This document shows positions 34,207 to 52,365 of a stretch of 64,000 nt of DNA, one piece after another; within the stretch, counting starts at the first letter, position 1, and each line of letters begins with the position of its first letter. The translations under genes were made by a program, and so were the position numbers. Under the pieces are notes generated by a model that worked only from the letters and a program-made list of their open reading frames with translations, had not been told where the DNA came from and ran no database searches. The stretch comes from Rubrivirga marina (lineage in GTDB: Bacteria; Bacteroidota; Rhodothermia; Rhodothermales; Rubricoccaceae), in assembly GCF_002283365.1 (NCBI RefSeq), contig NZ_MQWD01000001.1:3885985-3949984 (forward strand), read 5' to 3'.

Positions 34207-34235
34207 GAGGCGTGCCCGGAGGCCGGCCGGCGGGA

Positions 34236-34260: not shown

Positions 34261-34265
34261 GACGT

Positions 34266-34793: not shown

Positions 34794-34824
34794 CGGAGTG
34801 GGGGGAGCGGTGGAGATGCGGGGG

Positions 34825-37428
34825 TCAGTCGCGGGCGGCGTGGCGGACGCCGGCCGTGGCCTTGAAGCCGACGGCCCCGCGCGGGTCGAACCGATTGAGG
34901 ACCGCGCCGACACGCGTGAGCCCGACGCCGGCCAGCTCGGTCGCCACCTGGGTCATGGCGTCGAGGTCGGTCCGGTCCGCCTCGGCGACGAGGAGGGCCG
35001 CGTCGGCGTAGGGCGCGAGGAGCGTGGCGTCGGCGGCGGCGAGGGCGGCCGGCGTGTCGACGACGACGATGTCGAACTTGCCGCGGCAGTAGTCGAGGAG
35101 CTGCTTCACCGTCAGGGCCGACCACATCTGGTCGGGGCGCTCGACGGTCTCGCGCGGCGTCATGGCGAGGAGGTTGGGCACGGCCGTCGTCCAGAAGGCG
35201 ACGTTGGCCTCGGGCGGCCCCTCGCCGAACTGGGCGTGCGGCTCGAGCCCGAACAGGTCGCCGACGGCCGGGTGGCGGAGGTCGGCGTCGAGGAGGAGCG
35301 TGAGCCGGCCGGCCTGGGCCGCGGCGACGGCGAGGTTGGCCGCCGTGAGGCTCTTGCCCGCGTGGCCGTCCGGGCTGCCCACGAGGACGACCTGCGGGTG
35401 CGCCCCGCCGCCGGCGTAGAGCCCGGCGTGGAGGTGCCGGAACGCCTCAGCCTCGGGCGCGAACGACCGCGTGAGCGTCACGAGGCCGGGGTGGACGACG
35501 CAGCCCTCGATCTCCTGCCGGCCGCCGCGGAGGGCCTCTTTGAGGTCGGGGACGGTCCCGATGACGGCGAAGCCGCGGTCGCGAAGGTCGTCGGGCGTCC
35601 GCGTCTTGGTGTCGGTCTGGAAGCGGAGGAACGCGAGGCCGAGGCCGAGGAGGAGGCCGAGGAACCCGCCGAGGCCGAGCGACAGCGGGAGGACCGGCGA
35701 CGACGGCTCGCGCGGGGTCTGGACCTCGCGGAGCACCTGGGCGAAGCCGAACTCGGTCGTCTCCGACAGCTCGGCGCGGTCGAACTCGGTGCGGAGCTGC
35801 TGGAGCGTGGCCTCCGAGGTGGCCCGCTGGCGCTCGAGCTGTTCGAGCTCGACCTGCTGGCCGGGCACGGCGCGGAGCTGGCCGCGGGCCTCGCCGAGAC
35901 GGCGGGAGAGCGTCGAAGCGCGGGCCTCGGCGCCGGCGAGATCCGCCTGGACGGACGAGATCTGGCGCTGGAGCTCGGCGACGTAGGCCTGACCATTCGC
36001 GCCGTCGCTCGACAGGCTGAGCCCGCCGGCGGCCACGGCCGCGTCGGTCTGCGAGCCGATCCGCGCGCGGCGGTCGGCCTTGAGGCTCCGGAGACGCGTG
36101 TCGATGCTGGCCACGTCGGGATGGCCTGTCGGGTCGCCCCGGAGCTCGGGGTTCTGCATGTAGATCTGCTCGAGGAGCCGCTCCAGCCGCGCGATCTCGG
36201 TGTCGAGGTCCGTCGTCTCGACGACCGACGGCACGTCGGCGCTCCGCTCCAGCCGCTCGGGCACCGACGCGAGGTCGCTCCGGAGCTGCCCGAGGCGGGC
36301 GCGGTGGGTCTGCGCCTCGACGCGGGCGAGGTCGAGCTGGCCCTGGAGCTGGCCGATCTGGGACACCGTCACCCGCGTCTGCTCGTCGAGGCCGGCCGCG
36401 TTCTCGGCCGTCATGAAGCCGGCGAGCTGGTTCTCGATCTCGTCGAGCTCGCCCTCGCGCCGGGCGATCTGCTCTTCGAGCACCTCGCGCGTCCGCGTCG
36501 AGCGCTCGCGCGACGACGACTGCGTGAGGGCCTGGTACTCGTCGGTGTAGAGGCGGGCGATGAGGGCGGCCTCCTCGGCGCTGCCGGCCGCGGCCTCGAC
36601 GCGGATGGCATCGGCCTGGTCGGCGGCAGGCCCGATCGTCACGACCTCCTCCTGGAGGTAGTCGGCGAGGCCGTCGGCGGTGAGCGGCGTGCCGTAGCGG
36701 TCGACGGCGCCCTGAATGGAGGTGAAGGCCTCGGCCTCGGGCTGGCGGAGGAGCGTCTCGGCCGTCCGCTCGGCGATCTGCGGCGCCTGCTGGAGCACGA
36801 GCCCCTGGTTGACGACCTTCGAGACGCTCTCGCCCGGGGCCGCGGCCACGCCGCCGGCGCCCGTCTGGGCGGGGTCGTTCGGGATGATGAGGAGGACGCT
36901 GTGGGCCTTGTAGACCGGCGCCGAGAACAGGCCGTGCGCCGCGCCGAGGGCGAGGCCGAGCACGGTCAGGCCGAGCACGAGCGGCCAGTGGCGGCGGAGC
37001 ATCCGGAGCGTCCGGCGCATCGAGCGCCGCGCCTCGTCACGCGTCGCCGCCGAGGACGACGCGGGCGGGACCGGGGGCACGGGCGGGCCGCTCGGCGCCG
37101 TCGCCGGGACCGACCGCGAGACCGGCGCGAGAGCCGCCGTCGGCGCGTCGTCCGTGTCGAAGTCGATGCGGAAGCCGTCCCCGTCGTAGTCGACGTCCCC
37201 GCCGACCTCGCGGGCCGGGTCTGCCAGCGCCGACGCCCGCACGGGGGCGGCAGCCTCGGGCGCCTCGACGGCGATCTCGGAGGCGGCGACGGGCTCCCAC
37301 GCGGGGGCGGCCGGCCGGGAGGCGCCGTCGCCGGGCAGGCTGAGGTCTTCGAACACGGCGTCCTCGACCGAGGCGTAGGCGCCGGTCGGCGGCGTCTCGT
37401 GGCGGGAGTTCGGCGGACGGTCGGACAT
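34825..37428 (-). CDS. Wzc-like polysaccharide co-polymerase with BY-kinase-type ATPase domain
   Basis: 867 residues. A Pro/Ala/Asp-rich cytoplasmic N-terminus of about 130 residues is followed by a helix (PLVLGLTVLGLALGAAHG), a Wzz/GNVR periplasmic part with long coiled coils (about 230-560), a second helix (PLSLGLGGFLGLLLGLGLAFL) and a P-loop domain. The P-loop reads SPDGHAGKS (Lys692), two residues longer than SxxPGEGKT-type loops; Walker A' (LLLDADLRHP) and Walker B (IVVVDTPA) are normal. The C-terminus (GVRHAARD) lacks the Tyr cluster of autokinases. It controls chain length and export and is the first gene of the operon, with a C-rich leader. Confidence 0.9.
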   Translation of the reverse strand: MSDRPPNSRHETPPTGAYASVEDAVFEDLSLPGDGASRPAAPAWEPVAASEIAVEAPEAAAPVRASALADPAREVGGDVDYDGDGFRIDFDTDDAPTAALAPVSRSVPATAPSGPPVPPVPPASSSAATRDEARRSMRRTLRMLRRHWPLVLGLTVLGLALGAAHGLFSAPVYKAHSVLLIIPNDPAQTGAGGVAAAPGESVSKVVNQGLVLQQAPQIAERTAETLLRQPEAEAFTSIQGAVDRYGTPLTADGLADYLQEEVVTIGPAADQADAIRVEAAAGSAEEAALIARLYTDEYQALTQSSSRERSTRTREVLEEQIARREGELDEIENQLAGFMTAENAAGLDEQTRVTVSQIGQLQGQLDLARVEAQTHRARLGQLRSDLASVPERLERSADVPSVVETTDLDTEIARLERLLEQIYMQNPELRGDPTGHPDVASIDTRLRSLKADRRARIGSQTDAAVAAGGLSLSSDGANGQAYVAELQRQISSVQADLAGAEARASTLSRRLGEARGQLRAVPGQQVELEQLERQRATSEATLQQLRTEFDRAELSETTEFGFAQVLREVQTPREPSSPVLPLSLGLGGFLGLLLGLGLAFLRFQTDTKTRTPDDLRDRGFAVIGTVPDLKEALRGGRQEIEGCVVHPGLVTLTRSFAPEAEAFRHLHAGLYAGGGAHPQVVLVGSPDGHAGKSLTAANLAVAAAQAGRLTLLLDADLRHPAVGDLFGLEPHAQFGEGPPEANVAFWTTAVPNLLAMTPRETVERPDQMWSALTVKQLLDYCRGKFDIVVVDTPAALAAADATLLAPYADAALLVAEADRTDLDAMTQVATELAGVGLTRVGAVLNRFDPRGAVGFKATAGVRHAARD

Positions 37429-39969: not shown

Positions 39970-40593
39970 ATGCGACACCTCCTCATCTCCTCCGCGCTTC
40001 TGGTCGCGATGGGCGTCTCCGCCCAGACCCCCGGCGCCATCGTCACGGCCAACCCCTCCCTCTGCCTCTCCGAGTACGGCAGCTACGTACACACCCGCGC
40101 CTGCACGCCGTCCGTCAACCAGTTCGCCTCCGTCTACGTCTCGCCCCGGAACGCGTTCTATATCAAGACCACGAGCGGGGGGTGCCTGAGCGCGTTCGAG
40201 GGAGCCGGCCGGCCCGTGCGGAGCGTGGCCTGCAACGAGGCCGACGCCACCCAGCGCTGGTGGATCCACCCCAGCGGCCAGGTCCAGAACCAGGCGAACC
40301 AGGCTCTGTGCCTCGACGTCGAGGGCGGCCTCGGCCGGGACCGCCGGGTGCTGAACTACGCCTGCGACCTCAACGGGAACGAGGCGGCGCGGCGCGACAA
40401 CCAGCGGTTCTACCTCGGCGGGACGGTTCGCTACGACCCGGGGCTCGCTCAGCGGGCGACGGTGGCCTCCCGGCTGCCGGGCACCCACCACGTCACGACC
40501 GGCCTCCGCGGCGCGGGCATCATCGCCCCCGGGGGCGGCAACCTCATCGCGGCCGGCGGGGGCAACCTCATCGCGGCCGGCGGCCTCAACTAG
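39970..40593 (+). CDS. Secreted beta-trefoil (R-type-lectin-like) protein with C-terminal GGGNLIAA repeats
   Basis: 207 residues. A signal peptide (1-18, ending VSAQ) is followed by three trefoil subdomains. Each has a Cys-Leu ... Cys pair (LCLSEYGSYVHTRAC; GGCLSAFEGAGRPVRSVAC; LCLDVEGG ... YAC) and a QxW/QxF-type motif (NQF, QRW, QRF). That is the plan of the ricin B-type fold, which binds sugars in many proteins. The C-terminus carries octapeptides GAGIIAP, GGGNLIAA, GGGNLIAA and ends GGLN. A close paralogue lies at 47619 and a diverged one directly downstream. There is no T9SS domain, and the route beyond the periplasm is unknown. First gene of a three-gene group. Confidence 0.75.
   Translation: MRHLLISSALLVAMGVSAQTPGAIVTANPSLCLSEYGSYVHTRACTPSVNQFASVYVSPRNAFYIKTTSGGCLSAFEGAGRPVRSVACNEADATQRWWIHPSGQVQNQANQALCLDVEGGLGRDRRVLNYACDLNGNEAARRDNQRFYLGGTVRYDPGLAQRATVASRLPGTHHVTTGLRGAGIIAPGGGNLIAAGGGNLIAAGGLN
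40510..40590 (+). repeat. Octapeptide-coding tandem repeat
   Basis: 24-base units encode GAGIIAP-like, GGGNLIAA and GGGNLIAA, then the terminal GGLN. The repeats are in frame at the end of the trefoil protein gene and match in period those at 48156-48263. Confidence 0.75.
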
Positions 40594-40611
40594 CCCCTCC
40601 CCCTCCCGACC

Positions 40612-41208
40612 ATGCGACTCCTCCTCCTCCTCGCCCTCGCCGCAGCAGGGCCCGCCTCGGCCCAGCCGGGGGCCTTCCTCACCGCGTCGCCCCAGGCGTG
40701 CCTCTCCGCCCCCGACGGCCCCGTCGTCACCACCGACTGCACGGCGGCCTCGAACCAGTTTGAAGTCGACCGGGTCGGCCCCCACACCGTCGTCCGGGTC
40801 GGCACCCAGTGCCTCGCTGGCGCCACATCGGGTGCCCCCGTGCGAGCGGTGCCCTGCCGGGGCGGCGATCCCGCCCAGGGGTGGCGGATCACCGACGGGC
40901 GCGTCGAGAGCGCCGCCGCCCCCGGGCTGTGCCTGGCCCTCGGCGCACCGCCGGCGCAGGGCGCCCGGGCGACCCTCGAGGCGTGTGCGACCGACGGGCC
41001 CGCCGCCGAGCGCCAATGGTTCGCCCTCGGCGAGATCGTGCAGAACGCCGCGCTCGCCCGGCTCGCTCGCCGGGCCGACACGCTCGTCGGCTCGGAGCAC
41101 GTCCGCCGGCACCCCAGCGGCGTGGCCGTGATCGCCGACGGGAGCAATCACTTTGTCCGCACGGGCGGGGCGACCTACGCACGGGCCCCGCGAGGCGCCA
41201 TCCGGTAG
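40612..41208 (+). CDS. Secreted beta-trefoil protein, diverged paralogue
   Basis: 198 residues. Signal peptide MRLLLLLALAAAGPASAQ. Three trefoil subdomains are visible from Cys pairs (ACLSAPDGPVVTTDC; QCLAG ... VPC; LCLALG ... EAC) and QxW-type motifs (NQF, QGW, RQW). The tail keeps an eight-residue rhythm (GVAVIAD, GSNHFVRT, GGATYARA) but has lost the Gly-Asn repeat identity and the GGLN end. It starts 18 bases after the first paralogue behind CCCCTCCCCCTCCC, so the pair is a tandem duplication in one transcript. Ligand unknown. Confidence 0.7.
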   Translation: MRLLLLLALAAAGPASAQPGAFLTASPQACLSAPDGPVVTTDCTAASNQFEVDRVGPHTVVRVGTQCLAGATSGAPVRAVPCRGGDPAQGWRITDGRVESAAAPGLCLALGAPPAQGARATLEACATDGPAAERQWFALGEIVQNAALARLARRADTLVGSEHVRRHPSGVAVIADGSNHFVRTGGATYARAPRGAIR

Positions 41209-41212
41209 CCCC

Positions 41213-42301
41213 ATGAGATTCGTCCTCGCCCTCGCGGTCGTGGCGGGCGCCCACGCCCAGCCCGCACTGGAAGCCGGAGCCGCCCCTTTCGCCGACGACC
41301 GCTACGCCGAAGCCCTCGCCGCCTTCGAGGCCGCGGAGGCCGACCTCGCCGGCTACCCCCCGCTGACGCTGTGGCAGGGCCTCGCCCGCTACGGCGCGGC
41401 CGGCGCGCCGACCTCGATGTCCGCCGACGCGTTCTGGACCGCCCAGTCCGACCTCGGCCGCGCCAACACGGCCGACCGGATCTGGGGGACCGCCGTCACG
41501 TTCCTCAAGGGGCTCCTGTATTGGCGCGCCGGAGACGCCGCCAGCGCCGCCGACTGGTTCGAGTGGTGCGCCCCAGACGGCCTCGCGGCGGCGTCCTGTG
41601 CCCAGGCCCTCGCCGACGTCCAGGCCGGCCAGCCGGCTCCACCACTGGCTCGCTGGCCTGAGCTCGTCGAGCTTCCCGGGAGGGCCGGCGCCGCTCCGCC
41701 CGCCGACCCGCTCGCCGCGCCGCCCGGAGCGGAGCCCGCTGCACCGCCACCAGGCGGGGGCTTCCCGAGGTTCGGGCGCGGCCACGTCGTCCTCGTCAAC
41801 ACGGCCGGACCCCTGTGGGGCCGCGGGGTGGTCGAGGAGGTCGGCGAGGCGGGGACCCACTCCGAGGGGATGTACCTCATCGAGGGCGACGACGTCTACC
41901 GCGGCTGGTACTGGCACGGCGACGTCGAGGCGCCCGACCGCGAGCCGGTCTGGACCGACCACTACGTCGGCCGGTGGGACGTCCGGATTCCGGGGGCCAT
42001 CACGACCCGGACGGACGGGAGCACGCGGACTACCACCGTCTCGGGTGGCATGCGGCTCCCGCCCCTCGAGGTGTTCCCAGACGGGACCTACGCCTGGGCC
42101 ACCGACGACGGGGTGATCCGAGGCACCTGGATCCCGCGGGACGGCCTCCCCGGCATCGTGCTGCTCCGCGGGGACGAGGGCGCGGACTGGACGCTCTACC
42201 CGAACTCGGACCGGTCGTCGACAGAGACGTTCGGGACAGATCTCATCATCCTCAACTCCCCGACCGCGACCTACCGCGACGCCTACCGCATCCGAGACTA
42301 A
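41213..42301 (+). CDS. Secreted protein of unknown family, third gene of the trefoil group
   Basis: 362 residues. Signal peptide MRFVLALAVVAGAHAQ. The first third is helical and TPR-like (FADDRYAEALAAFEAAEADLAGYPPLTLWQGLARYG). A Pro/Ala linker (about 165-185) leads to a strand-rich half with GRGHVVLVNTAGPLWGRGVVEEV, WDVRIPG, LEVFPDGTYAW and GTWIPRDG, which reads like small beta-hairpin repeats. Only four bases separate it from the trefoil gene, so they are co-transcribed. I do not recognise the second half. The sigma-factor promoter begins 25 bases after its stop. Confidence 0.6.
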   Translation: MRFVLALAVVAGAHAQPALEAGAAPFADDRYAEALAAFEAAEADLAGYPPLTLWQGLARYGAAGAPTSMSADAFWTAQSDLGRANTADRIWGTAVTFLKGLLYWRAGDAASAADWFEWCAPDGLAAASCAQALADVQAGQPAPPLARWPELVELPGRAGAAPPADPLAAPPGAEPAAPPPGGGFPRFGRGHVVLVNTAGPLWGRGVVEEVGEAGTHSEGMYLIEGDDVYRGWYWHGDVEAPDREPVWTDHYVGRWDVRIPGAITTRTDGSTRTTTVSGGMRLPPLEVFPDGTYAWATDDGVIRGTWIPRDGLPGIVLLRGDEGADWTLYPNSDRSSTETFGTDLIILNSPTATYRDAYRIRD

Positions 42302-42326
42302 CGGTCCGGAGCGGCGCGAGGGCGGC

Positions 42327-42334
42327 TACCTTTG
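42327..42334 (+). promoter_or_regulatory. -7 promoter box of the ECF sigma factor gene
   Basis: TACCTTTG is a perfect match to TAnnTTTG and lies 22 bases before the GTG start, so transcription would begin near 42341. No clear TTG box is found 19-21 bases upstream. The box also overlaps a TTG that might otherwise be read as the start codon. Confidence 0.55.
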
Positions 42335-42355
42335 GCGGCCCTCGCCTCGCTCCCC

Positions 42356-42970
42356 GTGCCCGGCGCGCCCGACGTCACCCGCCTTCTCCGCGACCACGCC
42401 GCCGGCCGGCCGGCGGCCGGGGGCCCACTGCTCGCGGCCATCTACGACGAGCTCCGGCAGATCGCCCGCGCCCGCCTTCGCGGCGAGCGCGAGGACCACA
42501 CCCTCTCGACGACCGGGCTGGTCCACGAAGCCTACCTCCGCCTCGTCGACGTGACGCGAGTCGAGTGGCGCGACCGCGCGCACTTCTACGGGGCGGCCGC
42601 GGGCGTCATGCGCCGGGTCCTCATCGACTGGGCGCGCGCGCGGACGGCAGAGAAGCGGGGCGGCGAGGCGGCCGCCCTCTCCCTCGACGCGCTGGTCCAG
42701 AACGGAGAGCTGCCGGACGGTCCCCCGGCCCCCGTCCCCGCCGGCGACCTCCTGGCGCTCGACGAGGCGCTCGACACGCTCGCGCGCCTCTCGGCCCGCC
42801 AAGCCCGGGTGGTGGAGTGCCGCTTTTTCGCGGGGCTCACCATCGAGGAGACCGCCGAGGCGCTCGGCGTCTCGGCCAAGACGGTCAAGCAAGACTGGCG
42901 CCTCGCGCGGACGTGGCTCTATGCCCAGATCCGTCCCGGCGCCGCGGCCAGCTCGCCGGCCGAGGGCTGA
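42356..42970 (+). CDS. ECF-type RNA polymerase sigma factor (PF07638-like), kinase-linked
   Basis: 204 residues from GTG, chosen because the promoter box ends at 42334 and a C-rich tract precedes it. Region 2 shows AIYDELRQIARARLRGE, GLVHEAYLRL and AGVMRRVLIDWARARTAEKRGG; region 4 is LSARQARVVECRFFAGLTIEETAEALGVSAKTVKQDW. Where most ECF factors have an acidic DAED segment, this one has HTLSTTGLVHEAY (Ser51, Thr52, Thr53). In the EcfP-PknT pair of Vibrio parahaemolyticus a missing acidic segment is made good by phosphorylation from a neighbouring kinase. Here a Ser/Thr kinase gene starts 37 bases downstream and no anti-sigma gene is seen. Confidence 0.9.
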   Translation: MPGAPDVTRLLRDHAAGRPAAGGPLLAAIYDELRQIARARLRGEREDHTLSTTGLVHEAYLRLVDVTRVEWRDRAHFYGAAAGVMRRVLIDWARARTAEKRGGEAAALSLDALVQNGELPDGPPAPVPAGDLLALDEALDTLARLSARQARVVECRFFAGLTIEETAEALGVSAKTVKQDWRLARTWLYAQIRPGAAASSPAEG

Positions 42971-43007
42971 GCGGCCGCCCCTCCCCTCGCCTGTTTGCCT
43001 GTTCCCC

Positions 43008-45638
43008 ATGACGCCTCACGACTGGGAGACCGTCGGCCGCCTATTCCATGAGGCGGCCTCCCTGCCCCTCCCCGACCGGAGCCCGTACCTCGACGAGGCC
43101 TGCGCCCCCGGCCTCCGCGGCGAGGTCGAGCGGCTCCTGGCGGCGGAGCCCCCCGCCGAGGCCTACTTCGACCCCCCGACCGGGCTCGCGGCGCTCCTGC
43201 CCACCGCGGAGCTGCGAGAGGTCGTGGCGCGCGAGCGGGACGACGACTTGCCGGCCGGCGCCCGGGTCGGGCCCTGGGAGATCGTCGAGGAACTGGGCCG
43301 GGGCGGCATGGGCGCCGTGTATCGCGCCCGTCGGGCTGACGCCCAGTACGAGCAGACCGTCGCGCTGAAGGTGGTCAAGCGCGGCATGGACACCGACGCG
43401 CTGCTCGCCCGCTTCCGGCGCGAGCGGGCCGTCCTCGCGAGCCTGGAGCACCCCGGGATCGCCCGCCTCGTCGACGGCGGGGCCGCGCCCGACGGCCGGC
43501 CGTACCTCGCCCTCGAACTCGTCGACGGCGAGCCGATCACGCGGTGGGCCGACCGGCACCGGCTCGGCGTCGAGGCCCGGCTCCAGCTCTTCCTCCAGGT
43601 CTGCGAGGCTGTCGCGCACGCCCACCGGCGGCTCGTGGTCCACCGAGACCTCAAGCCGTCGAACGTCCTGGTGGACCCCGAGGGCCGGGCCCGACTCCTC
43701 GACTTCGGCCTGGCGGCCGTCCTGAGCGACGACGCCTCCGAGGCCGGCGAACGGTCCATCGGCGGCCCCCGACTCCTCACGCCCGAGTACGCGGCGCCGG
43801 AGCAGTTCGAAGGCGGGCCGACCACGACCGCCACCGACGTGTACACGTTGGGCGTCCTCCTGTACGAGCTGCTCACGGGGCGGCGTCCCCACGGCACAAC
43901 CCGGCGGCGTCTGCCCATGGGGGCCACCCCGACGGCGCGGCCCGCCCGGCCCAGTGCGGCGGCGACGCGGCCTCAGGAGCGCGACGACGCGCCCGAGGCC
44001 GAGGCCCTCGCCGCCCTCCGTGCGACGACGCCGGCCCGGCTCCGCCACCGCCTCCGTGGCGACCTCGACGCGATCGCGCTGACGGCGCTCCAGGCCGAGC
44101 CCGAGCGGCGGTACGCCAGCGTCGACGCCCTCGCCGACGACGTCCGCCGCCACCTCGCGGCACGACCGGTGGCCGCGCGCCCCGACCGGCTCGCGTACCG
44201 CGCCTGGGCGTTCGCGCGGCGGAACCGGGCCCGGCTGGCCGCCGCCGCGCTCGCCCTCGCCGTCGCCGCGACCCTGGGCGGGCAGGCCCTCCTTCAGCAG
44301 CGGGCCGCGGCGAGCGAGCGGGAGCGGGCCGACCTCGCCTCGGCCTTCGTGCTCGGCCTCCTGACCGAGTCGGACCCTCGCGAGGGGGCCGGGGGGACAA
44401 CGCCCGTCCGCGACGTGCTCGCCCGCGCCGAGCGCCGCGCCGAGGCCGAGCTGGCCGGCCGGCCCGACCTCCTCGCGCGCGTGCTGACCACGGTCGGGGG
44501 CACGCTCACGGAACTGGAGGAGTATGACCGGGCCGGGCCGCTGCTGCGCCGGGCCCTCGCACTGGCCGAGGCGACCGGCGACGCGCCGGCCGCGGCCGAG
44601 GCGCACATCCGCCTGGCGGGGCGGGCCCGACGGCAGAACCGCTACGAAGCTGCCGCCGCGCACGCCCGGCAGGCCGCCGCCACCGCCCTCCCCCGCGGGG
44701 ACGCCGCCGCGGTCCTCCACGCCCGTGCGCTCGGCGAGCAGGCCGCCGTCGCCGCCGACCGGGGCGCCTTCGACGCCGCCGCCCGGGACTACCGCACCGC
44801 CCTCGACCTCCTACGGGGTGCGTCACGAGCGGAGCGCCACACGGCCAGGCTCCTCTCTCAGCTCGGTGGCGTCTTGTCGGACGTCGGCGACCTCGACGGC
44901 TCCGCACGGGTCCTACGGGAGGCCGCCGCGCTCCAGCGAGAGCTCGTGGGGCCGTCCCACCCCGACCTCGCCTTCACCTACGTCTCGCTCGGCAACACGC
45001 TCGAACTCCGCGACAGCCTCGCGGCTTCCGTGGCGGCCCACCGAGAGGCCCTCGGCGTGCTCCAGCGGGCCTACGGCGAGGACCACTGGGCCACGGCGAC
45101 CGCTCTCCACAACCTGGCCAGCGCGGAGGACGCGGCCGGCCGCGACGCCCTCGCGGCCCAACTCTACGACCGCGCCCTCGCCATCAAGCGACGGCTCTAC
45201 GGCGACACGCACGGCTCCGTCGCGGCGACGCTGATCAACCTGGGGTACCTCCAGTACGAGCAGGGGGCCGTCGTCGACGCCGAGGCGACGACGCGCGAGG
45301 CGCTCCGCGTGGCACGGGCCATCTACGGCGACGCCCACTTCCGGACGGCCCTGGCCGCGTACAACCTCGCCGAGATCCTCCTCGGCCAGCGCCGAGCCCT
45401 CGACGAGGCCGAGCGGCTGGCAGCGGAGGCCCTCGTCGTGGACCGGGCGACGTACGGCCCCGACGACGAGGGGACGCTCCTGACGGCGCTCCTTCTCGGG
45501 CGCGTGCAAGCCGCGCGGGGCGCGTGCGGGCGGGCCGTTCCTACCCTGCGGGCCGCGCTCGGCGCGATCGACGGCCGGCTTCGCGACGCGCCGGAGCGCC
45601 GGGCGGCCGCGGCCGACCTCGCAGCCTGCGAGGGCTGA
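43008..45638 (+). CDS. Membrane Ser/Thr protein kinase with C-terminal TPR sensor region
   Basis: 876 residues. A short N-terminal helical part (WETVGRLFHEAASLPLPDRSPYLDEAC) is shared with the second kinase here. The Hanks-type kinase domain has the G-loop GRGGMGAVY (from Gly97), VALKVVK, HRDLKPSN (His212, Asp214), DFGLA and EYAAPEQ, so it should be active. A membrane helix near 405-425 separates it from many TPRs that would face the periplasm and sense a ligand or protein. It follows the ECF sigma gene by 37 bases and is probably its activating kinase. It ends before a palindrome shared with the convergent nuclease gene. Confidence 0.93.
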   Translation: MTPHDWETVGRLFHEAASLPLPDRSPYLDEACAPGLRGEVERLLAAEPPAEAYFDPPTGLAALLPTAELREVVARERDDDLPAGARVGPWEIVEELGRGGMGAVYRARRADAQYEQTVALKVVKRGMDTDALLARFRRERAVLASLEHPGIARLVDGGAAPDGRPYLALELVDGEPITRWADRHRLGVEARLQLFLQVCEAVAHAHRRLVVHRDLKPSNVLVDPEGRARLLDFGLAAVLSDDASEAGERSIGGPRLLTPEYAAPEQFEGGPTTTATDVYTLGVLLYELLTGRRPHGTTRRRLPMGATPTARPARPSAAATRPQERDDAPEAEALAALRATTPARLRHRLRGDLDAIALTALQAEPERRYASVDALADDVRRHLAARPVAARPDRLAYRAWAFARRNRARLAAAALALAVAATLGGQALLQQRAAASERERADLASAFVLGLLTESDPREGAGGTTPVRDVLARAERRAEAELAGRPDLLARVLTTVGGTLTELEEYDRAGPLLRRALALAEATGDAPAAAEAHIRLAGRARRQNRYEAAAAHARQAAATALPRGDAAAVLHARALGEQAAVAADRGAFDAAARDYRTALDLLRGASRAERHTARLLSQLGGVLSDVGDLDGSARVLREAAALQRELVGPSHPDLAFTYVSLGNTLELRDSLAASVAAHREALGVLQRAYGEDHWATATALHNLASAEDAAGRDALAAQLYDRALAIKRRLYGDTHGSVAATLINLGYLQYEQGAVVDAEATTREALRVARAIYGDAHFRTALAAYNLAEILLGQRRALDEAERLAAEALVVDRATYGPDDEGTLLTALLLGRVQAARGACGRAVPTLRAALGAIDGRLRDAPERRAAAADLAACEG

Positions 45639-45642
45639 GCCT

Positions 45643-45676
45643 GGCCGCCTCGGTGACCGCGCCGAGGCGGGCGGCC
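45643..45676. repeat. Palindromic element between convergent genes
   Basis: CCGCCTCGG (45645-45653) and CCGAGGCGG (45662-45670) around TGACCGCG, with a partly paired outer GGC/GCC. It lies between the kinase stop and the nuclease stop and may terminate both. Confidence 0.7.
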
Positions 45677-45688
45677 TCGTTCCGGAGG

Positions 45689-47416
45689 CTACTCGTCCTC
45701 GTCGTCCTCCGGCTCGTTCGTGGGCACGGCCTCCCGTGCGGCGTCGATGACGGCCTCCAAGAAGTCGTCGGCGTCGTGCTCGGGTCGCCAGCGGACCTGG
45801 CGGGCGCCCTCGGGGTGGAGCCGCATCCAGTTGGCGAGCATCCGCATCTCGTCGACGTCCGGCCGGAGGTGGCTCTCGGGCGGGGGGAGCGCGGGGTCGA
45901 ACGCCTCGGCGAGCGCGGCGGCGAGGTCGGCGACCTCGTCCGGCGCGGGGTCGGCGGGGAGGTCGACGCGACCGGCGAGGCGGCCGTACCGGATCAGGAA
46001 AAGTTGGGCCCCGCCCTCGTGGCCCTCATAGCCCGGTGCGAGTGGCTCGATCAGGACCGCGTCGTGCTCGTGGACCGCGCTCGCGATCTTCCGCTGACGG
46101 CCGAGCGTCCGTTGGAGACGGCGGAGCTGGTCGCGGTACCACCCGGCGGCCTCGTACTCGCGCGACGCCGCGGCCTCCCGCATCGCCTCCTCGACCATGT
46201 CGACGGCCTCGGTATCCCGGCCGGTGAGGAACGCGCGGACGCGCTCGACCTCGAGCCCGTACTGCTCGGCGCCCTCGCCGCCGACGCACGGCGCGCCGCA
46301 CCGGCCCATCTCGTGGTAGAGGCACGGCCGGCCGAGCGTGAACACGTTGTCGTCGCACTCCCGGAGCATGAACAGCCGCCCGATCAGCTCGACGAGCTCC
46401 TCGGCCTGGCCGCGGCGCCCGAGCGGCCCGTAGTACTCGGCCCCGTCGTGCGCGATGCGCGGCGTCCACGAGATCGTGGGGTACGGGTGCGTCGCGTCGA
46501 GGCGGAGGAACGGGTAGTCGCGGTAGCGCCGCTGGGCGCGGTTGTAGACCGGGAGGTAGTTCTTGATCAGCTTCGACTCCTCGAGGAGCGCCGCCAGCTC
46601 GGTCCCCGTCTCGCGCCACGTCACGTCGCGCACGTCACGGACGAGCTTCCGCGTCTTCGGCACGTGGCTCTCGACGCCCGTGAAGTAGCTCCGCACGCGG
46701 TTCCGGAGGCTCTTGGCCTTGCCGACGTAGATCACGCGGCCCTTCGCGTCGCGCATGAAGTAGACGCCTGGCCGGTCCGGCAGGAGCGGCAGGATCTCGT
46801 CGCGGATCTTCCGGAGGTGGCTCGGCTCGCGGCGCGTGTCCTTGTAGCGCCGTCGCTGGAAGGCGAGCACGTCCTCGACCGTCTCGACGCCGAACTCGAT
46901 CCGCATCCGGTCGAGGAGGATCGTGAGGAGCTCGGCCGTGGCGACGGCGTCGCCGAGGGCCCGGTGCCGGCCGTTGACCGCGATGCCGAAGTGCTCGATG
47001 AGCTTGCTCAGCCCCTTCGACGGGAGCGACGAGAGGAGACGCCGGGCGAGGCGAAGCGTGTCGAGAGACGGGTTCTGGAGCGGCGGGAGACCGGCTTCGG
47101 CGAGCGCCACGTCCAAGAACCGCGCGTCGAACGGGAGGTTGTGGGCCACGAGGACCGCGTCGCCGAGGAACTCGAGGAACCGCGGCATGACCTCGGCGGC
47201 CTGGGGCTGGCCGTAGACCATGGCCGTCGAGATGCCCGTCAGCCGCGTGATCCGGTGGGGCACGTGGCGGCCGGGATCGACGAGTTGCTGGAACGTCTCG
47301 ACGACCTCGCCGCCCATGAGGCGGGCGGCCCCGATCTCGATCAGCCGGTCCTCGCCGGCCCGCGAGCCGGTGGTCTCGGTGTCGACGATGACGAAGGGGG
47401 CGGTGTCCAGGTCCAT
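45689..47416 (-). CDS. DnaQ-like exonuclease fused to UvrC-type GIY-YIG nuclease
   Basis: 575 residues. The N-terminal DEDDh 3'-5' exonuclease has VDTETTG (Asp12, Glu14), HNLPFDARF and HRALGDA. Then comes a GIY-YIG domain (PGVYFMRDAKGRVIYVGKAKSLRNRV, about 215-240), a four-Cys motif (ECDDNVF ... CLYHEMGRCGAPC) that holds an Fe-S cluster in UvrC, and a UVR helix pair (SREYEAAGWYRDQLRRL). The C-terminal endonuclease and HhH parts of UvrC are absent, as in Cho. Similar fusions are known in Actinobacteria. A role in nucleotide excision repair is likely. The acidic tail ends EPEDDEDE. Confidence 0.92.
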   Translation of the reverse strand: MDLDTAPFVIVDTETTGSRAGEDRLIEIGAARLMGGEVVETFQQLVDPGRHVPHRITRLTGISTAMVYGQPQAAEVMPRFLEFLGDAVLVAHNLPFDARFLDVALAEAGLPPLQNPSLDTLRLARRLLSSLPSKGLSKLIEHFGIAVNGRHRALGDAVATAELLTILLDRMRIEFGVETVEDVLAFQRRRYKDTRREPSHLRKIRDEILPLLPDRPGVYFMRDAKGRVIYVGKAKSLRNRVRSYFTGVESHVPKTRKLVRDVRDVTWRETGTELAALLEESKLIKNYLPVYNRAQRRYRDYPFLRLDATHPYPTISWTPRIAHDGAEYYGPLGRRGQAEELVELIGRLFMLRECDDNVFTLGRPCLYHEMGRCGAPCVGGEGAEQYGLEVERVRAFLTGRDTEAVDMVEEAMREAAASREYEAAGWYRDQLRRLQRTLGRQRKIASAVHEHDAVLIEPLAPGYEGHEGGAQLFLIRYGRLAGRVDLPADPAPDEVADLAAALAEAFDPALPPPESHLRPDVDEMRMLANWMRLHPEGARQVRWRPEHDADDFLEAVIDAAREAVPTNEPEDDEDE

Positions 47417-47618
47417 GGGGGGCGGAAGATCGCGACAGCATCGCCCCGCCCGCTGACGGCCGCCGTGTCACACCGTTCGCACATCCGTTCTTCGCAGTCG
47501 GACGTCGCCCTGACATCCGGGAAAAATCGGGGAGGGACGGTGCCGTTTCGAGCCTTCGTGCCGCCTCGTGTGGAAGCGCCGGCACCCGGCCGTCGCACCC
47601 TTTCGTTTCCCAACGCTT

Positions 47619-48266
47619 ATGCGACCCTTCCTCTTCGCGGCGCTCGCCGCGTTCCTCGCCCCTACCGTCTCAGCGCAGTGGGGCGCGGTCCTCACTGCCG
47701 ACCCCACCCTCTGCCTCGCCGAGTCCGGCGGCTACGTGCACACGCGGGCGTGCGGGCCCCAGTACAACCACTTCCAAGCCCGGTTCATCCCGTCCCGCGG
47801 GGCCTACTATCTCAAGACCGGGAGCGGAGGGTGCCTCAGCGCCTTCGAAGGGGCCGGGCGTCCGCTCCGAAGCGTCCCCTGCATCCTCGGCGACGCCAAC
47901 CAGGAGTGGTCGTTCCACCGGACGGGGCAGGTCATCAGCCGGGCCGCCGGCGGCGCCAACTGCATCGACGTCGAGCGAGGGCTGGGGCGGGACCGCCGTG
48001 TGCTCGTGTACCGGTGCGACGTCAACTGGAACGAGGCGGCCCGGGCCCACAACCAGCGGTTCTACTTCAGCACCGGCATCCAGTACAACCCCACCCTCGC
48101 CAGCCGGGCGGTCCGGGTCTCGCTTCTCCCCGGGTCGCCATACGTGTCGTTCTCTCAGGGGGCCAGCGTCGTCTCGGCCGGATCGGGCAACGTGGTCTCG
48201 GCCGGCGGCGGCAACGTGGTCTCAGCGGGGTCCGGCAACGTGGTCTCGGCCGGGGGCCTCAACTAG
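47619..48266 (+). CDS. Secreted beta-trefoil protein with C-terminal GSGNVVSA repeats
   Basis: 215 residues and clearly a paralogue of the protein at 39970: same signal-peptide layout (ends VSAQ), LCLAESGGYVHTRAC, GGCLSAFEGAGRPLRSVPC, a DVERGLGRDRRVL segment and motifs YNHF, NQEW, NQRF. The tail has QGASVVSA, GSGNVVSA, GGGNVVSA, GSGNVVSA and again ends GGLN. The shared end suggests a conserved role for the terminus, for example assembly or export, but this is inference. A second membrane Ser/Thr kinase gene follows after 122 bases, repeating the trefoil-kinase pairing. Confidence 0.75.
   Translation: MRPFLFAALAAFLAPTVSAQWGAVLTADPTLCLAESGGYVHTRACGPQYNHFQARFIPSRGAYYLKTGSGGCLSAFEGAGRPLRSVPCILGDANQEWSFHRTGQVISRAAGGANCIDVERGLGRDRRVLVYRCDVNWNEAARAHNQRFYFSTGIQYNPTLASRAVRVSLLPGSPYVSFSQGASVVSAGSGNVVSAGGGNVVSAGSGNVVSAGGLN
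48156..48263 (+). repeat. Octapeptide-coding tandem repeat
   Basis: Four in-frame 24-base units encode QGASVVSA, GSGNVVSA, GGGNVVSA and GSGNVVSA, then GGLN. Third positions differ between units, so the protein sequence is kept more closely than the DNA. Confidence 0.8.
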
Positions 48267-48324
48267 CCGCCTCGGACGCAGTGGAGGTCCGGCGGGACTC
48301 TGGACGGGACCTCGCACCGCGCTG

Positions 48325-48332
48325 TACGTTGC
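48325..48332 (+). promoter_or_regulatory. Possible -7 box for the second kinase gene
   Basis: TACGTTGC, similar to TAnnTTTG, lies 57 bases before the kinase start and after the trefoil gene stop. The kinase may therefore have its own promoter. Confidence 0.4.
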
Positions 48333-48388
48333 GCTCGGCTCGTGCGTGGGCGGCCTCCAGCGTGGGGCCGCCCGTCCCAGCCCCGCCC

Positions 48389-51034
48389 ATGACCGACTCG
48401 CTCTCCGACTGGCGCCGCGTCGAGGCCGTTTTCAGCGAAGCGGCCGACCTCCCGACCGAGGCCCGCCCCGCGTTCCTCGACGGCGCCTGTCGCACATCCG
48501 ACGGGGCCCCTGACACGGACCTCCGCCGGAAGGTGGAGGACCTCCTCGACGCCGACGCCCCGGCCGCCGCCTTCTTCGACGCGCCACCGCCGAAGCGCCT
48601 GGAGCGCGTCGGGCCGTGGCGGCTGGTCGATCGCGTCGGACGAGGCGGGATGGGCGAGGTCTGGCGCGCCGAGCGGGACGACGGGCGGTATGAACAAACG
48701 GCGGCCGTGAAGCTCGTCCGCGTCGGGCTGGCGCCGCGGCTCGAGGCCCGGTTCCTGGCCGAGCGCCAGATCCTGGCCCGGCTCGACCACCCGGCGATCG
48801 GGCGGCTCCTCGACGGCGGCGTGGCCGAGGACGGACGGCCGTGGCTGGCGATGGAGTTCGTCGAGGGCGAACCGATCACGGCCTACTGCGACCACCACAC
48901 GCTGAGCGTCGACGCCCGGCTTGAGCTGTTCCGCTCGGTCTGCGACGCGGTCCAGTCGGCCCACCGGAAGCTCGTGGTCCACCGCGACCTCAAGCCGTCG
49001 AACGTCCTCGTGACGGAGTCGCCGGAGGGGCCGCGCGTCAAGCTCCTCGACTTCGGCATCGCCAAGCTCCTCGCCGAGGACGACACCGCGGCCGTCGAGA
49101 CGGTGGCCGACCTCCGCATGATGACGCCGGAGTACGCCGCCCCCGAACAGGTGGCCGAGGGCGACATCACGACGGCGACTGACGTCTACGCCCTCGGCGT
49201 CCTGCTCTACGAGCTCCTCACCGGGCGCCGGCCGCACGCCGAGGCCGGCGGGCGCCACGCCATCGAGCAGGCGATCCTCGAGACCGAGCCGCTCCGCCCG
49301 TCCGACGCCGTCACGCACGCGACGACGGGCGAGGCGGCCCGTCCCACGAGCGAGCAGACCGGGTCGGGCGGGCTCCGGGCGACGTCGCCCGAGCGGCTCC
49401 GGCGCCGCCTCCGCGGCGACCTCGACCGGATCGTGATGAAGGCGCTCCGGAAGGAGCCCGAGCGGCGCTACGACTCGGCCGCCGCGCTCGGCGCCGACGT
49501 CCGGCGACACCTCCAGGGGCTCCCGGTCGAGGCACGGCCCCAGACGGTCGGGTACCGCGCCTCCCGGTTCGTCCGGCGCCACCGGACCGGCGTGGCCGTG
49601 TCGATCCTGTCGCTCGCGGTCGTCCTCGGCGCCGCCGGCGTGGCCCTCCACGAGGCCGACCGCGCGAGCGAGGAGCGCGACCGGGCCGTCCGCGCGACGA
49701 CGCTCCTGACGGACCTCCTCGGGGACGTCGACCCGGACGAGACGGGCGGCCGGCAGGTCGCGGCCGTCGACCTTCTCGACCGGACGTCGGCCCGTCTCCG
49801 GTCCGGCCTCCGCGACGACCCGTGGACGCGGGCCTCAGTCGAGGCCGCCCTCGGGAAGGTCTACGGCAACCTCGGCCTGTTCGACCGCGCCGAGGCGCTC
49901 CAGCGCGACGCCCTCCGGGTCCGCGAGGAGCTCGGCGGCCCGGGCCACCCCGAGGCCCTCGAGAGCGCGGCCGACCTCGCGACGCTCCTCACGCAGAGCT
50001 CGCGGTATGCCGAGGGCGAGGAGATCCTCGAGCGCGCGCTCGCGAGCGGCATCGACGCGCTCGGGCCGACGGCGCCGGCCGTCGCGACGGTCCGCCGGGC
50101 CATGGGCCTCAACCTCGTGAGCCAGGGCCGGTTCGCCGAGGCCGAGCCGTACCTCCGCCGGGCCATGGCCGATGTCGAGCGCGAGCTCGGGCCGGACCAC
50201 GTCGAGACGGCCCACGCGCACGCCGCGATGGGCGCGCTCCTCCGCCGCCAGGGCCGCCTCATCGACGCGGAGGTGGCCTACCAGCGCGCGGCCGAGCTCT
50301 ACCGGACCCACTACGGGCCGGAGAGCGCCCGCCTCGGGAGCGTGCTCAACGAGCTCGGCGTCGTCGTCAAGAACCAGGGCGACTACCTCCGGGGCCAGAC
50401 CTACTACCGACAGGCCCTCGGCATCTTCGAGGAGACCTACGGGGAGAACCACCCCGAGACGGCGCTCGCCCTCAGCAACCTCGCCCTCGTCTACAAGGAC
50501 CGCGCGCTGATGACCGGCGACGAGGCGCTCCTCCAGCGGGCCGCACCGCTCCTCGACCGGTCGCTCACCACGTTCCGCCGGCTCCACGGCGACGACCACC
50601 TCCGCGTGGCCCACACGGAGGCCCACCTCGGCATGCTCGCGCTCGCCGAGGGCGACGCGGTCGCGGCCGAGGGCTGGTTCCGCCGCTCGCTCGCCACGCA
50701 CGACCTCGCGCGCACGCCGGCCCTGCACTCGGCCCGGCCGTACCCCATGACAGGGCTGGGCACGGCGCTCGTCCACACCGGCCGCGCCGCGGAGGCCGTC
50801 CCGCTCCTCCGCGAGGCGCTCCGGGTCCGCGAGGTCTCGACGCCCGGCCACTGGCGGATCGCGGAGGCCCAGAGCGCGCTCGCGGAGGCCTACGTCGACC
50901 TCGGCCGGACGCTCTCGGCCGACTCCCTCCTCTCGCTCGCCGAGGCGCGCATGGTGCGCGGCGACGGCGAGTTCGGCCCGCTCCGGATCCTGACGCGACA
51001 GCGACGGGCCGCCCTCGCCGCCCGCGGCGGCTGA
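48389..51034 (+). CDS. Membrane Ser/Thr protein kinase with C-terminal TPR sensor region
   Basis: 881 residues with the same plan as the kinase at 43008: N-terminal helical part (WRRVEAVFSEAADLPTEARPAFLDGAC), kinase domain with GRGGMGEVW (from Gly84), AAVKLV, HRDLKPSN (His198, Asp200), DFGIAKLL and EYAAPEQ, one membrane helix (GVAVSILSLAVVLGAAGVAL), then about ten TPRs of the kinesin-light-chain/TPR_12 type (LGPDHVETAHAHAAMGALLRRQGR). It should be active. No sigma factor gene is adjacent, so its target is unknown. The preceding trefoil protein is a candidate ligand for the TPR region. Confidence 0.93.
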   Translation: MTDSLSDWRRVEAVFSEAADLPTEARPAFLDGACRTSDGAPDTDLRRKVEDLLDADAPAAAFFDAPPPKRLERVGPWRLVDRVGRGGMGEVWRAERDDGRYEQTAAVKLVRVGLAPRLEARFLAERQILARLDHPAIGRLLDGGVAEDGRPWLAMEFVEGEPITAYCDHHTLSVDARLELFRSVCDAVQSAHRKLVVHRDLKPSNVLVTESPEGPRVKLLDFGIAKLLAEDDTAAVETVADLRMMTPEYAAPEQVAEGDITTATDVYALGVLLYELLTGRRPHAEAGGRHAIEQAILETEPLRPSDAVTHATTGEAARPTSEQTGSGGLRATSPERLRRRLRGDLDRIVMKALRKEPERRYDSAAALGADVRRHLQGLPVEARPQTVGYRASRFVRRHRTGVAVSILSLAVVLGAAGVALHEADRASEERDRAVRATTLLTDLLGDVDPDETGGRQVAAVDLLDRTSARLRSGLRDDPWTRASVEAALGKVYGNLGLFDRAEALQRDALRVREELGGPGHPEALESAADLATLLTQSSRYAEGEEILERALASGIDALGPTAPAVATVRRAMGLNLVSQGRFAEAEPYLRRAMADVERELGPDHVETAHAHAAMGALLRRQGRLIDAEVAYQRAAELYRTHYGPESARLGSVLNELGVVVKNQGDYLRGQTYYRQALGIFEETYGENHPETALALSNLALVYKDRALMTGDEALLQRAAPLLDRSLTTFRRLHGDDHLRVAHTEAHLGMLALAEGDAVAAEGWFRRSLATHDLARTPALHSARPYPMTGLGTALVHTGRAAEAVPLLREALRVREVSTPGHWRIAEAQSALAEAYVDLGRTLSADSLLSLAEARMVRGDGEFGPLRILTRQRRAALAARGG

Positions 51035-51057: not shown

Positions 51058-52365
51058 CTAGCGGTCGAGGCCGAGCGCCTCGAACAGCATCCGCCCGACG
51101 GCGTCGTTCGCGTGCCGACCGGCAAACTGCGAGGCGCCGGGCCCGAAGGCGTAGAGCCCGACGTCGACGGCCGTGTGGCCGCTCGTGGTCCAGCCGATCC
51201 CAGCCGGCTCGCTGATGAGGTCACGGACGACCGGGCCCAGTGCGTACGGGTCGCCGGTCGCGAGGGCGCCGCGAATCGCCTCCTCGGCGCCCTCGGGCAG
51301 GTCGTCGAGCGCGAGCCCCTCGCGGACGACGGCGACGGGGTCGCCGCCGGCTTGGAGCGCGGCGGTCATGGCCTCAAACGAGGCCGTCGCCGCCAGGAGT
51401 GGCGCGGGGTCCCAGGCGTAGATGCCATCCCGGCCGAGCGCCATTCCTCCCGTCTCGTGGTCGGCCGTCGAGACGACGAGCGTGGTGCCGTCGCGAGCGG
51501 CCCAGTCGAGGACGGCGGCCACGGCCTCGTCGTAGGCCAGGATGTCGCCGAGGTGCGCCGCCGGGTCGTTGGCGTGGCCGGCGTGGTCGATCCGCGAGCC
51601 CTCGATCATGAGGAAGAACCCGTTCTCGCGGCCGTCCGGCGAGCTCGCCAGCAGGTCGAGCGCCGTCGTCGTCATCTCGGCCAGCGACGGCTGGTCGGTC
51701 TCGTCGCGGTCGATCTCGTAGGCGAGGTGGCCGTCGGCGAGGAGCGCGGCGGCGGGCGTGGCGTCGAGCGCGTCGTACCCGTCCCGGTCGGTGGCGACGG
51801 CCCACCCGTCGGCGGCCATCGGGCCGGTGAGGTCGGTGAAGTAGGACCGGCCGCCGCCGAAGAGCACCTCGACGCCGGAGGCCGCGAGCTGGCGCGCGAC
51901 CTCGGCCTCCTCGGCGCGGCTCTCGACGTGGGCGGCGAACGAGGCCGGCGTGGCGTGCGTGATCCGGCTCGTGGCGACGAGCCCCGTCGCGAGCCCGGCC
52001 GCCTCGGCCGCCTCGAGGACCGTCCGGCACGGCCGCCCGTCCGCGTCGACGGCGATGGCACCATTGTACGTCTTGAGGCCGCAGGCGTAGGCCGTCGCCC
52101 CGGCCGCCGAGTCCGTCACCCGGCTGTCGGACGACGACGTCTCGACGGAGCCGACGAGGACGCCATCGAGCGCGAGCGGGGCGCCCTTCGCCGCGGCCCC
52201 GAGCGTGGCCGAGGCCGGCCCGAACCCGTCGGCGATCATCAGGACGACGTTGCGAGGGGTCGCGTCGCCTGAGGCGGCGCGGGGGCGCTCGGGCGCGTCG
52301 GTGGCCGGCTGGGCGGTCGCGCACGCGCTGAGGGCGAGCGCCAGGAGGATCAGGAGGCGGTTCAT
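51058..52365 (-). CDS. Alkaline phosphatase (PhoA family), lipoprotein
   Basis: 435 residues. The signal peptide ends LALSACATAQ, so Cys15 is a likely lipid anchor. Metal and catalytic blocks: VVLMIADGFG (Asp46), DSAAGATAYACG with the nucleophile Ser86, SRITHATPASFAAHV, IEGSRIDHAGHANDP, VVSTADHETGGMALG and TSGHTAVDVGLYAFG. It releases phosphate from organic esters in the periplasm or at the cell surface, for phosphate supply. No pho-box-like site was recognised. Convergent with the second kinase gene, 23 bases apart. Confidence 0.95.
   Translation of the reverse strand: MNRLLILLALALSACATAQPATDAPERPRAASGDATPRNVVLMIADGFGPASATLGAAAKGAPLALDGVLVGSVETSSSDSRVTDSAAGATAYACGLKTYNGAIAVDADGRPCRTVLEAAEAAGLATGLVATSRITHATPASFAAHVESRAEEAEVARQLAASGVEVLFGGGRSYFTDLTGPMAADGWAVATDRDGYDALDATPAAALLADGHLAYEIDRDETDQPSLAEMTTTALDLLASSPDGRENGFFLMIEGSRIDHAGHANDPAAHLGDILAYDEAVAAVLDWAARDGTTLVVSTADHETGGMALGRDGIYAWDPAPLLAATASFEAMTAALQAGGDPVAVVREGLALDDLPEGAEEAIRGALATGDPYALGPVVRDLISEPAGIGWTTSGHTAVDVGLYAFGPGASQFAGRHANDAVGRMLFEALGLDR

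What the first reader, a model, noticed from the sequence alone, without database searches (positions are those of the whole stretch)
39970..51034. Repeated pairing of secreted beta-trefoil proteins with TPR-bearing Ser/Thr kinases
Two groups in 11 kb share one plan: secreted ricin-B-like protein(s) with a signal peptide, followed by a single-pass Ser/Thr kinase whose TPR half should lie outside the cytoplasm. Group 1 is 39970-45638 (two trefoil proteins, a third secreted protein, an ECF sigma factor, a kinase); group 2 is 47619-51034 (one trefoil protein, one kinase). The kinases share N-terminal segments and the trefoil proteins are clear paralogues, so the module seems to have duplicated. 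Inference: the trefoil protein binds a glycan, or is itself the ligand, and signals through the TPR region to the kinase and then to the sigma factor. I know of no described system with this make-up.
Basis: partly seen in the sequence, partly recalled or inferred. Interest (0 to 1): 0.75.

Follow-up and report, generated by a model that had tools for sequence, protein, structure and literature searches.

The report
Secreted lectins beside kinase–sigma signalling pair
A bacterium carries genes for secreted sugar-binding-type proteins beside two membrane kinases of a widespread known signalling type; the neighbourhood is real, but it was found in this one genome only and the kinases do not look duplicated together with the lectins.

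Summary
The genes are as described: a tight run T1–T2–S3–ECF–K1 (39970–45638), then T3–K2 (47619–51034). T1–T3 are ricin-B trefoil proteins; K1 and K2 are kinase–TM–TPR proteins; the ECF carries STTG, the mark of kinase-activated (ECF43-type) sigma factors.

The kinase–sigma half is a known kind: EcfK/PknS of Xanthomonas has the same plan (PMC13147305, passages), and 40 of 60 K1/K2-like kinases surveyed in seven related genomes have an ECF directly upstream.

The "repeated module" reading is not borne out. A T1–T3 profile hits none of 243 other class genomes at E<=0.001. K2 has a 72% orthologue in the same slot in a congener without such trefoils, where a multi-TM gene occupies T3's place. K2's TPR half is as conserved there (75.7%) as its kinase half (73.5%). 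K1 and K2 are not sisters in the kinase tree (AU p 0.051, borderline). Forty ricin-B stretches of other genomes show no such kinase.

Best reading: T1, T2 and S3 are secreted output of one ECF43-type operon; a trefoil copy came to lie beside an older kinase. Trefoil-as-ligand is not excluded, chiefly for K1, but has no positive evidence.

The parts
39970..40593 (+). T1, secreted ricin-B-type beta-trefoil protein, 207 aa, with a C-terminal octapeptide tail
   Evidence: PF00652 E 7.1e-11; low-confidence model still finds trefoil lectins in PDB; 24-bp repeat 40520-40584
40612..41208 (+). T2, secreted ricin-B-type beta-trefoil protein, 198 aa, degenerate tail
   Evidence: PF00652 E 6.5e-9; 37% identical to T1; 18-bp gap to T1
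41213..42301 (+). S3, secreted protein of unknown family, helical N-half and beta-rich C-half in a low-confidence model
   Evidence: no Pfam/NCBIfam match; one relative among 147 other genomes, G002, 34% over residues 161-347; model pLDDT 50.7
42332..42970 (+). ECF sigma factor of the kinase-activated (ECF43-like) type, sigma2.2 motif STTG; TTG start as called
   Evidence: PF07638 1.8e-55, TIGR02999 3.7e-59; motif
43008..45638 (+). K1, Ser/Thr kinase - one TM - TPR protein, 876 aa
   Evidence: Pkinase 91-296, TPR_12 in 7 stretches, best 696-771; hydrophobic segment 410-428
45689..47416 (-). conserved gene between the two groups, read here as an exonuclease/GIY-YIG protein (sequence reading, no family search run); orthologues anchor the synteny
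   Evidence: 86, 85 and 74% identical orthologues in G001, G003, G004
47619..48266 (+). T3, secreted ricin-B-type beta-trefoil protein, 215 aa, with a longer octapeptide tail; sits where relatives have a multi-TM gene
   Evidence: PF00652 E 1.2e-7; 24-bp repeat 48167-48253; synteny
48389..51034 (+). K2, Ser/Thr kinase - one TM - TPR protein, 881 aa; orthologue in same slot in G001
   Evidence: 72% over 884 columns to L138:7933-10617

Best explanation
Group 1 is one operon built on a kinase-activated ECF sigma factor. K1 senses something in the periplasm through its TPR half, phosphorylates the ECF at the second Thr of its STTG motif, and the active sigma factor transcribes target genes, most simply its own operon, so that the secreted trefoil proteins T1 and T2 and the secreted protein S3 are OUTPUT of the pathway (surface or periplasmic glycan-binding-type proteins), not its input. 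Group 2 is not a copy of that module: K2 is an older kinase of this family that already occupied the slot beside the 45689-47416 gene, and a trefoil gene related to T1 came to lie upstream of it in this lineage, in place of a multi-TM gene. Shown: gene content, gene order, short gaps, ECF motif, synteny, no close trefoil relative found in related genomes. Inferred: co-transcription, phosphorylation, sigma targets, glycan binding, direction of the T1/T3 copying, that T3 was gained here rather than lost by relatives.
For: Gaps of 18, 4, 30 and 37 bp on one strand from T1 to K1 (30 also). ECF: PF07638/TIGR02999 and uncharged STTG, in line with ECF43 members (PMC13147305 and PMC8999054, passages). 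K1/K2 share the plan of PknS: N-terminal extension, kinase, one TM, TPRs. 40 of 60 K1/K2-like kinases in 7 genomes have an ECF directly upstream on the same strand; the genes upstream of those 40 pairs are diverse (12 same-strand, 7 of them within 150 bp; 28 divergent), which fits variable cargo rather than one dedicated ligand. In X. citri the sigma factor acts on a T6SS encoded in the same region, an output. K2 orthologue without trefoil in the same slot; G000/G001 DNA similarity runs to about window 47486 and stops before T3.
Against: No expression, promoter or phosphorylation data. No shared promoter between T1 and T3: the best BLASTN match of the two upstream stretches is 35 bases, 80%, in opposite orientation (E 5e-4), the others E 0.9 or worse. 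Group 1 has no orthologous copy found in congeners, so its operon structure cannot be checked by conservation. K2 has no ECF beside it. Absence of trefoils in relatives could be loss. K1+K2 as one clade is not formally rejected (p 0.051) and the bootstrap had not settled.
Confidence: 0.55

Rival explanations
1. Ligand/co-receptor reading: the trefoil protein binds a glycan or acts itself as ligand, docks on the periplasmic TPR half, and so switches the kinase and then the ECF.
For: TPR domains bind proteins (general knowledge; also PMC13147305); all three PF00652 genes in the genome lie beside K1/K2; group 1 is operon-like. In PknS the periplasmic half is needed for signalling (PMC13147305, passages).
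Against: K2 keeps an equally conserved TPR half (75.7% vs kinase 73.5%) in a congener with no T1-T3-like gene; K1 and K2 TPR halves are only 31.7% identical while T1/T3 are 55%; no other stretch of the 58 surveyed, with the other 58 kinases, holds a T1-T3-like gene (blastp E<=1e-4).
Confidence: 0.13
2. Coincidence of neighbourhood: a small lectin gene family was acquired and copied locally beside one of many such kinases, with no functional link to either kinase.
For: Secreted-type genes are common throughout these stretches: 76 of 170 genes at distance 1-2 from kinases, 84 of 178 at 3-4, 69 of 196 further out. About 3% chance for one site (arithmetic). No recurrence in any other genome. T3 stands in a slot where a congener has the kinase alone.
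Against: Very short gaps from T1 through K1 argue for one transcript; gene composition is not foreign (GC 0.711-0.775 against a mean of 0.731, sd 0.024, for 49 window genes).
Confidence: 0.3
3. True module duplication: one ancestral trefoil-kinase unit was duplicated and the second copy lost its ECF.
For: Both groups share the order trefoil then kinase; kinases 42% and trefoils 55% identical. The AU test does not reject K1, K2 and the orthologue as one clade at 0.05 (p 0.051).
Against: K2 groups with its G001 orthologue (100/100) and then with two other kinases (100/99); K1 lies elsewhere (92/89). Forcing K1, K2 and the orthologue together costs 37.4 log units. The K2 orthologue lacks the trefoil.
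Confidence: 0.02

Closest known systems
EcfK/PknS of Xanthomonas citri (ECF43 sigma factor with Hanks-type TPR kinase; PMC13147305, passages)
   Same: ECF gene next to a kinase with N-terminal extension, kinase domain, one TM and periplasmic TPRs; Thr in the sigma2.2 motif
   Different: the X. citri pair controls a T6SS and its motif is QATE; here the pair is preceded by secreted trefoil genes; no phosphorylation shown here
EcfP/PknT of Vibrio parahaemolyticus (ECF43; described in PMC8999054, passages)
   Same: STTA at sigma2.2 against STTG here; kinase gene in the neighbourhood
   Different: response to polymyxin; no lectin cargo mentioned in the passages seen
Ricin_B_lectin / CBM13 secreted proteins (PF00652)
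   Same: trefoil domain over the curated cut-off in T1, T2, T3; T1 model finds CBM13 and other trefoil lectins
   Different: short stand-alone proteins, T1 and T3 with an octapeptide tail; sugar binding untested; T2 appears to have lost site residues (sequence reading)

Membership tests
ECF43-type kinase-activated ECF sigma factor | PF07638 / TIGR02999-type ECF (that these go with ECF43 is recalled) | tested here: met
   1.8e-55 and 3.7e-59
ECF43-type kinase-activated ECF sigma factor | Hanks-type kinase gene next door | tested here: met
   K1 starts 37 bp after the ECF stop
ECF43-type kinase-activated ECF sigma factor | sigma2.2 DxxD replaced by an uncharged motif with Thr (QTTA/STTA) | tested here: met
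   STTG in LSTTGLVHEAY; of 45 ECFs in the survey the motif was recognised in 40, with Thr at the third place in 37; placed by regular expression, not by structure
ECF43-type kinase-activated ECF sigma factor | assignment by the published ECF group models | not tested
   those models are not on hand; other kinase-linked groups exist (ECF59, 61, 62, 217, 283 in PMC8999054)
ECF43-type kinase-activated ECF sigma factor | phosphorylation of that Thr by the partner kinase | not testable with these tools
   needs biochemistry
PknS-like TPR receptor kinase | N-terminal extension, kinase domain, single TM, C-terminal TPRs | tested here: met
   TM by hydropathy only
Ricin-B lectin | PF00652 trefoil domain over the cut-off | tested here: met
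   3 of 3 proteins
Ricin-B lectin | sugar-binding residues | tested here: inconclusive
   Asp after Cys-Leu/Ile (CLDV, CIDV) and Asn-Gln are present in the third repeat of T1 and T3 and absent from T2, by reading the alignment; which residues define the site is recalled
   tree; synteny; AU p 0.051, borderline
   T1-T3 profile: no hit at E<=0.001 in 147 relatives or 243 other class genomes. Ricin-B genes of other genomes: 11 longer and 29 short stretches, partly the same loci, have no K1/K2-like sequence at E<=1e-3 (with positive controls in 71)

The most novel reading that the evidence does not exclude
Secreted trefoil lectins act as soluble co-receptors of ECF43-type TPR kinases: T1/T2 deliver a glycan signal to K1, and the pathway was extended to a second, older kinase when a trefoil copy was placed beside K2, so that one glycan cue reaches two kinases.
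Probability: 0.08. Interest if true: 0.65.

Novelty: new member of a known kind. Interest (0 to 1): 0.27.

Why it matters
What TPR kinases paired with ECF sigma factors sense is largely unknown to me from the papers seen, although genomes of this lineage can carry a dozen or more of them. An operon that ties such a pair to small, soluble secreted proteins gives a concrete place to ask whether neighbouring secreted proteins are outputs or ligands. As a new system it is much weaker than first thought, since it rests on one genome.

Tried and rejected
Looked for trefoil relatives by profile in 148 genomes and the 244 class genomes offered (both counts include this genome; three hits at E 0.005-0.009 in other genomes, two over profile positions 1-43 and 1-49, where the signal peptide lies, and one in a frame with six stops, judged chance), in two scans of GTDB contigs (66 and 48 pattern matches, none confirmed), and T3 in plasmids and phages (none). 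The contig scans use two short peptide patterns each and miss divergent relatives. Ricin-B domains as such do occur in relatives: one search has four other genomes of the same order or class (G016, G051, G137, G319) among 38 of 395 in the phylum.

Looked for a general excess of secreted genes beside the kinases: 76/170 near, 84/178 intermediate, 69/196 far, a slight slope not worth a claim; the signal-peptide rule and the gene caller are crude scripts of my own. One fetched stretch, L148, was called in wrong frames although tblastn shows a kinase there; it yielded no kinase row and is missing from the 60. Of the 60 kinases, 54 match the TPR half of K1 or K2 at E<=1e-3 and 6 do not (4 of them in this genome). 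Among neighbour families present in three or more stretches only a ~177-aa lipoprotein lies at distance 1 in every member.

Structure prediction: T1 pLDDT 44.3 and S3 50.7, both too low to use in detail. T1 still finds trefoil lectins (27 hits at E<=0.001); S3 finds nothing at E<=0.001.

Shared promoter between T1 and T3: not found. Foreign base composition: none. Remnant of the multi-TM gene in the T3 slot: no match there when the G001 protein was compared; the G003 and G004 versions were not compared. A listing on a related genus was not used.
Full report
What is there. On the + strand, 39970-45638 holds T1 (207 aa), T2 (198 aa), S3 (362 aa), an ECF sigma factor (212 aa as called from a TTG start) and K1 (876 aa), with gaps of 18, 4, 30 and 37 bp. 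A gene on the minus strand (45689-47416) follows, then T3 (47619-48266, 215 aa) and K2 (48389-51034, 881 aa) with a 122-bp gap. Pfam gives Ricin_B_lectin over its cut-off in T1, T2 and T3, Sigma70_ECF in the ECF, and Pkinase plus several TPR families in K1 and K2; S3 matches nothing.

The kinase-sigma half is known. The ECF matches TIGR02999 and carries S-T-T-G where most sigma factors have a negatively charged DxxD (by regular expression). PMC13147305 (passages) describes EcfK/PknS: co-occurrence with a Hanks-type kinase is the hallmark of ECF43, the consensus at this place is QTTA with a phosphorylated Thr, and PknS has an 83-residue N-terminal extension, a kinase domain, one TM and three periplasmic TPRs. 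The same passages say that a Thr-to-Ala change at that place leaves EcfK functional in one test and that a second site in the linker matters, so the single-site story is not universal. PMC8999054 and PMC8103513 (passages) describe the group and EcfP (STTA). K1 has this plan: kinase match from residue 91, hydrophobic segment at 410-428, TPRs after it. I did not run the published ECF group models, so 'ECF43-type' rests on neighbour, motif and Pfam/TIGR family.

It is also abundant here. K1 as a query finds 10 places in this genome at E<=1e-60 and at least one place in 19 of the 20 genomes searched, this one included. I fetched stretches around such kinases from seven genomes: this genome's own, and a choice from the listed (and truncated) hits, mainly from four better assemblies (G001, G004, G015, G017). 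Genes were called with a small codon-usage script. Among 60 K1/K2-like kinases (13 in this genome, 15 in G001, 1 in G002, 1 in G003, 8 in G004, 8 in G015, 14 in G017) 40 have an ECF directly upstream on the same strand and 42 have one on either side; 54 of the 60 also match the TPR half of K1 or K2. One fetched stretch (L148) was miscalled and is not in the count. In the 45 ECFs of these stretches the regular expression recognised the motif in 40, with Thr in third place in 37; 5 were not recognised.

The T1-T3 family was found in this genome only. This genome has three PF00652 places, all here. A profile of T1-T3 finds no other genome at E<=0.001 among 148 genomes, this one included, and none among 244 of the class, this one included (limit 0.01; three weak hits at 0.005-0.009 are judged chance). 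Three congeners were among those searched, 97%, 93% and 81% complete. Ricin-B domains as such are known in the phylum: 38 of 395 genomes sampled, four others of the same order or class among them. I took 11 longer stretches from 8 of those other genomes and the 29 short ones that came (partly the same loci); tblastn of K1 and K2 finds nothing in them at E<=1e-3, while positive controls in the same run do ring. Several of these stretches end at contig ends. Two scans of GTDB contigs, and plasmid and phage records, gave no confirmed relative.

Synteny separates the two groups. The 45689-47416 protein has orthologues at 86% (G001), 85% (G003) and 74% (G004). In all three it lies near a gene for the alkaline-phosphatase-like protein (51058-52365 here; name by sequence reading), with a multi-TM gene in between. 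In G003 and G004 there is no kinase there. In G001 there is a kinase 72% identical to K2 over 884 columns, between the multi-TM gene and the phosphatase-like gene, as K2 is here; there is no trefoil in that slot or, a T1-T3-like gene in that genome. DNA similarity between the two genomes runs from the anchor gene to about window 47486 and then stops before T3. So K2's presence in this slot does not depend on T3, and T3 stands where relatives have a multi-TM gene. Group 1 has no counterpart at this place in G001 or G003.

The kinases do not look like a duplicated pair. In a tree of the 60 N-terminal halves K2 groups with its G001 orthologue (100/100), then with G000_L073 and G003_L158 (100/99); K1 groups with four other kinases (92/89) on a long branch (bootstrap not settled). 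Holding K1, K2 and the orthologue together costs 37.4 log units, p-AU 0.051, so the test is borderline and the synteny carries the argument. By region K2 and its orthologue are 73.5% identical in the kinase part and 75.7% in the TPR part; K2 and K1 are 57.5% and 31.7%. If T3 were the ligand of K2, one would expect its TPR half to differ more from that of a species without such trefoils.

S3. Its only relative found among 147 other genomes is in G002 (34% over residues 161-347), where the gene lies third from a TPR kinase and has a different N-terminal part (a weak PPC match below cut-off). The matching kinase locus in this genome lacks it (L074). So the S3 C-terminal domain lies near such a kinase in both genomes where it was found, which is suggestive but, with many kinases per genome, not strong; this is the one observation that favours a link between a secreted member of group 1 and these kinases. 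The low-confidence model has a helical N-half and a beta-rich C-half.

The trefoil proteins. The T1 model has mean pLDDT 44.3, yet its best structural matches are trefoil lectins including CBM13, in line with the Pfam call. T1 and T3 end in octapeptide repeats encoded by 24-bp units, 2.7 and 3.6 copies. By reading the alignment, T1 and T3 keep Asp and Asn-Gln in the third repeat and T2 does not; that these residues make the sugar site is recalled.

How it most likely works. K1 reads a periplasmic cue, phosphorylates the ECF, and the ECF turns on its own operon, so the lectins and S3 are made on demand. Every step after gene order is inference from the ECF43 examples. T3 beside K2 is read as a later placement. 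The main competitor is plain coincidence of neighbourhood: one site falls within five genes of such a kinase about 3% of the time by rough arithmetic, secreted-type genes are common around these kinases and away from them, and the two sites are not independent. The ligand reading is third.

Literature. No paper was found in the held library that joins ricin-type or beta-trefoil proteins with such kinases and sigma factors (searches; listings only). That is a statement about those searches, not about all print.

Noticed in passing
L074:6734-7267, L072:3170-3700, L151:9354 on: A ~177-aa lipoprotein gene lies next to one clade of TPR kinases in three congeners: a better candidate for a conserved secreted partner of a kinase than the trefoils.
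   Followed up: partly
L076, L147, L150, L165, L183, L184: An ECF gene followed by two tandem K1/K2-like kinases in six of the 58 surveyed stretches.
   Followed up: no
window 40520-40584 and 48167-48253: 24-bp tandem repeats encode the octapeptide tails of T1 and T3, with different copy number; they may vary between strains.
   Followed up: partly
L072:5381-6424: S3-like gene in a congener with a different N-terminal part, third gene from a TPR kinase; the shared C-terminal domain matches no Pfam family.
   Followed up: partly
window 24561-37428: Genes that read like a surface polysaccharide cluster: membrane proteins, glycosyltransferase-like proteins, an SLBB-like protein (34266-34793, E 1.8e-5 but below the cut-off) and a Wzc-like protein (34825-37428), by sequence reading except the SLBB match.
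   Followed up: no
L138:10664-11362, L139:10978-11688, L140:10366-11283: Multi-TM gene beside the 45689-47416 orthologue in three relatives (the G001 one has no Pfam family over cut-off), no match found in the T3 slot here. That the three are one family was not tested.
   Followed up: partly
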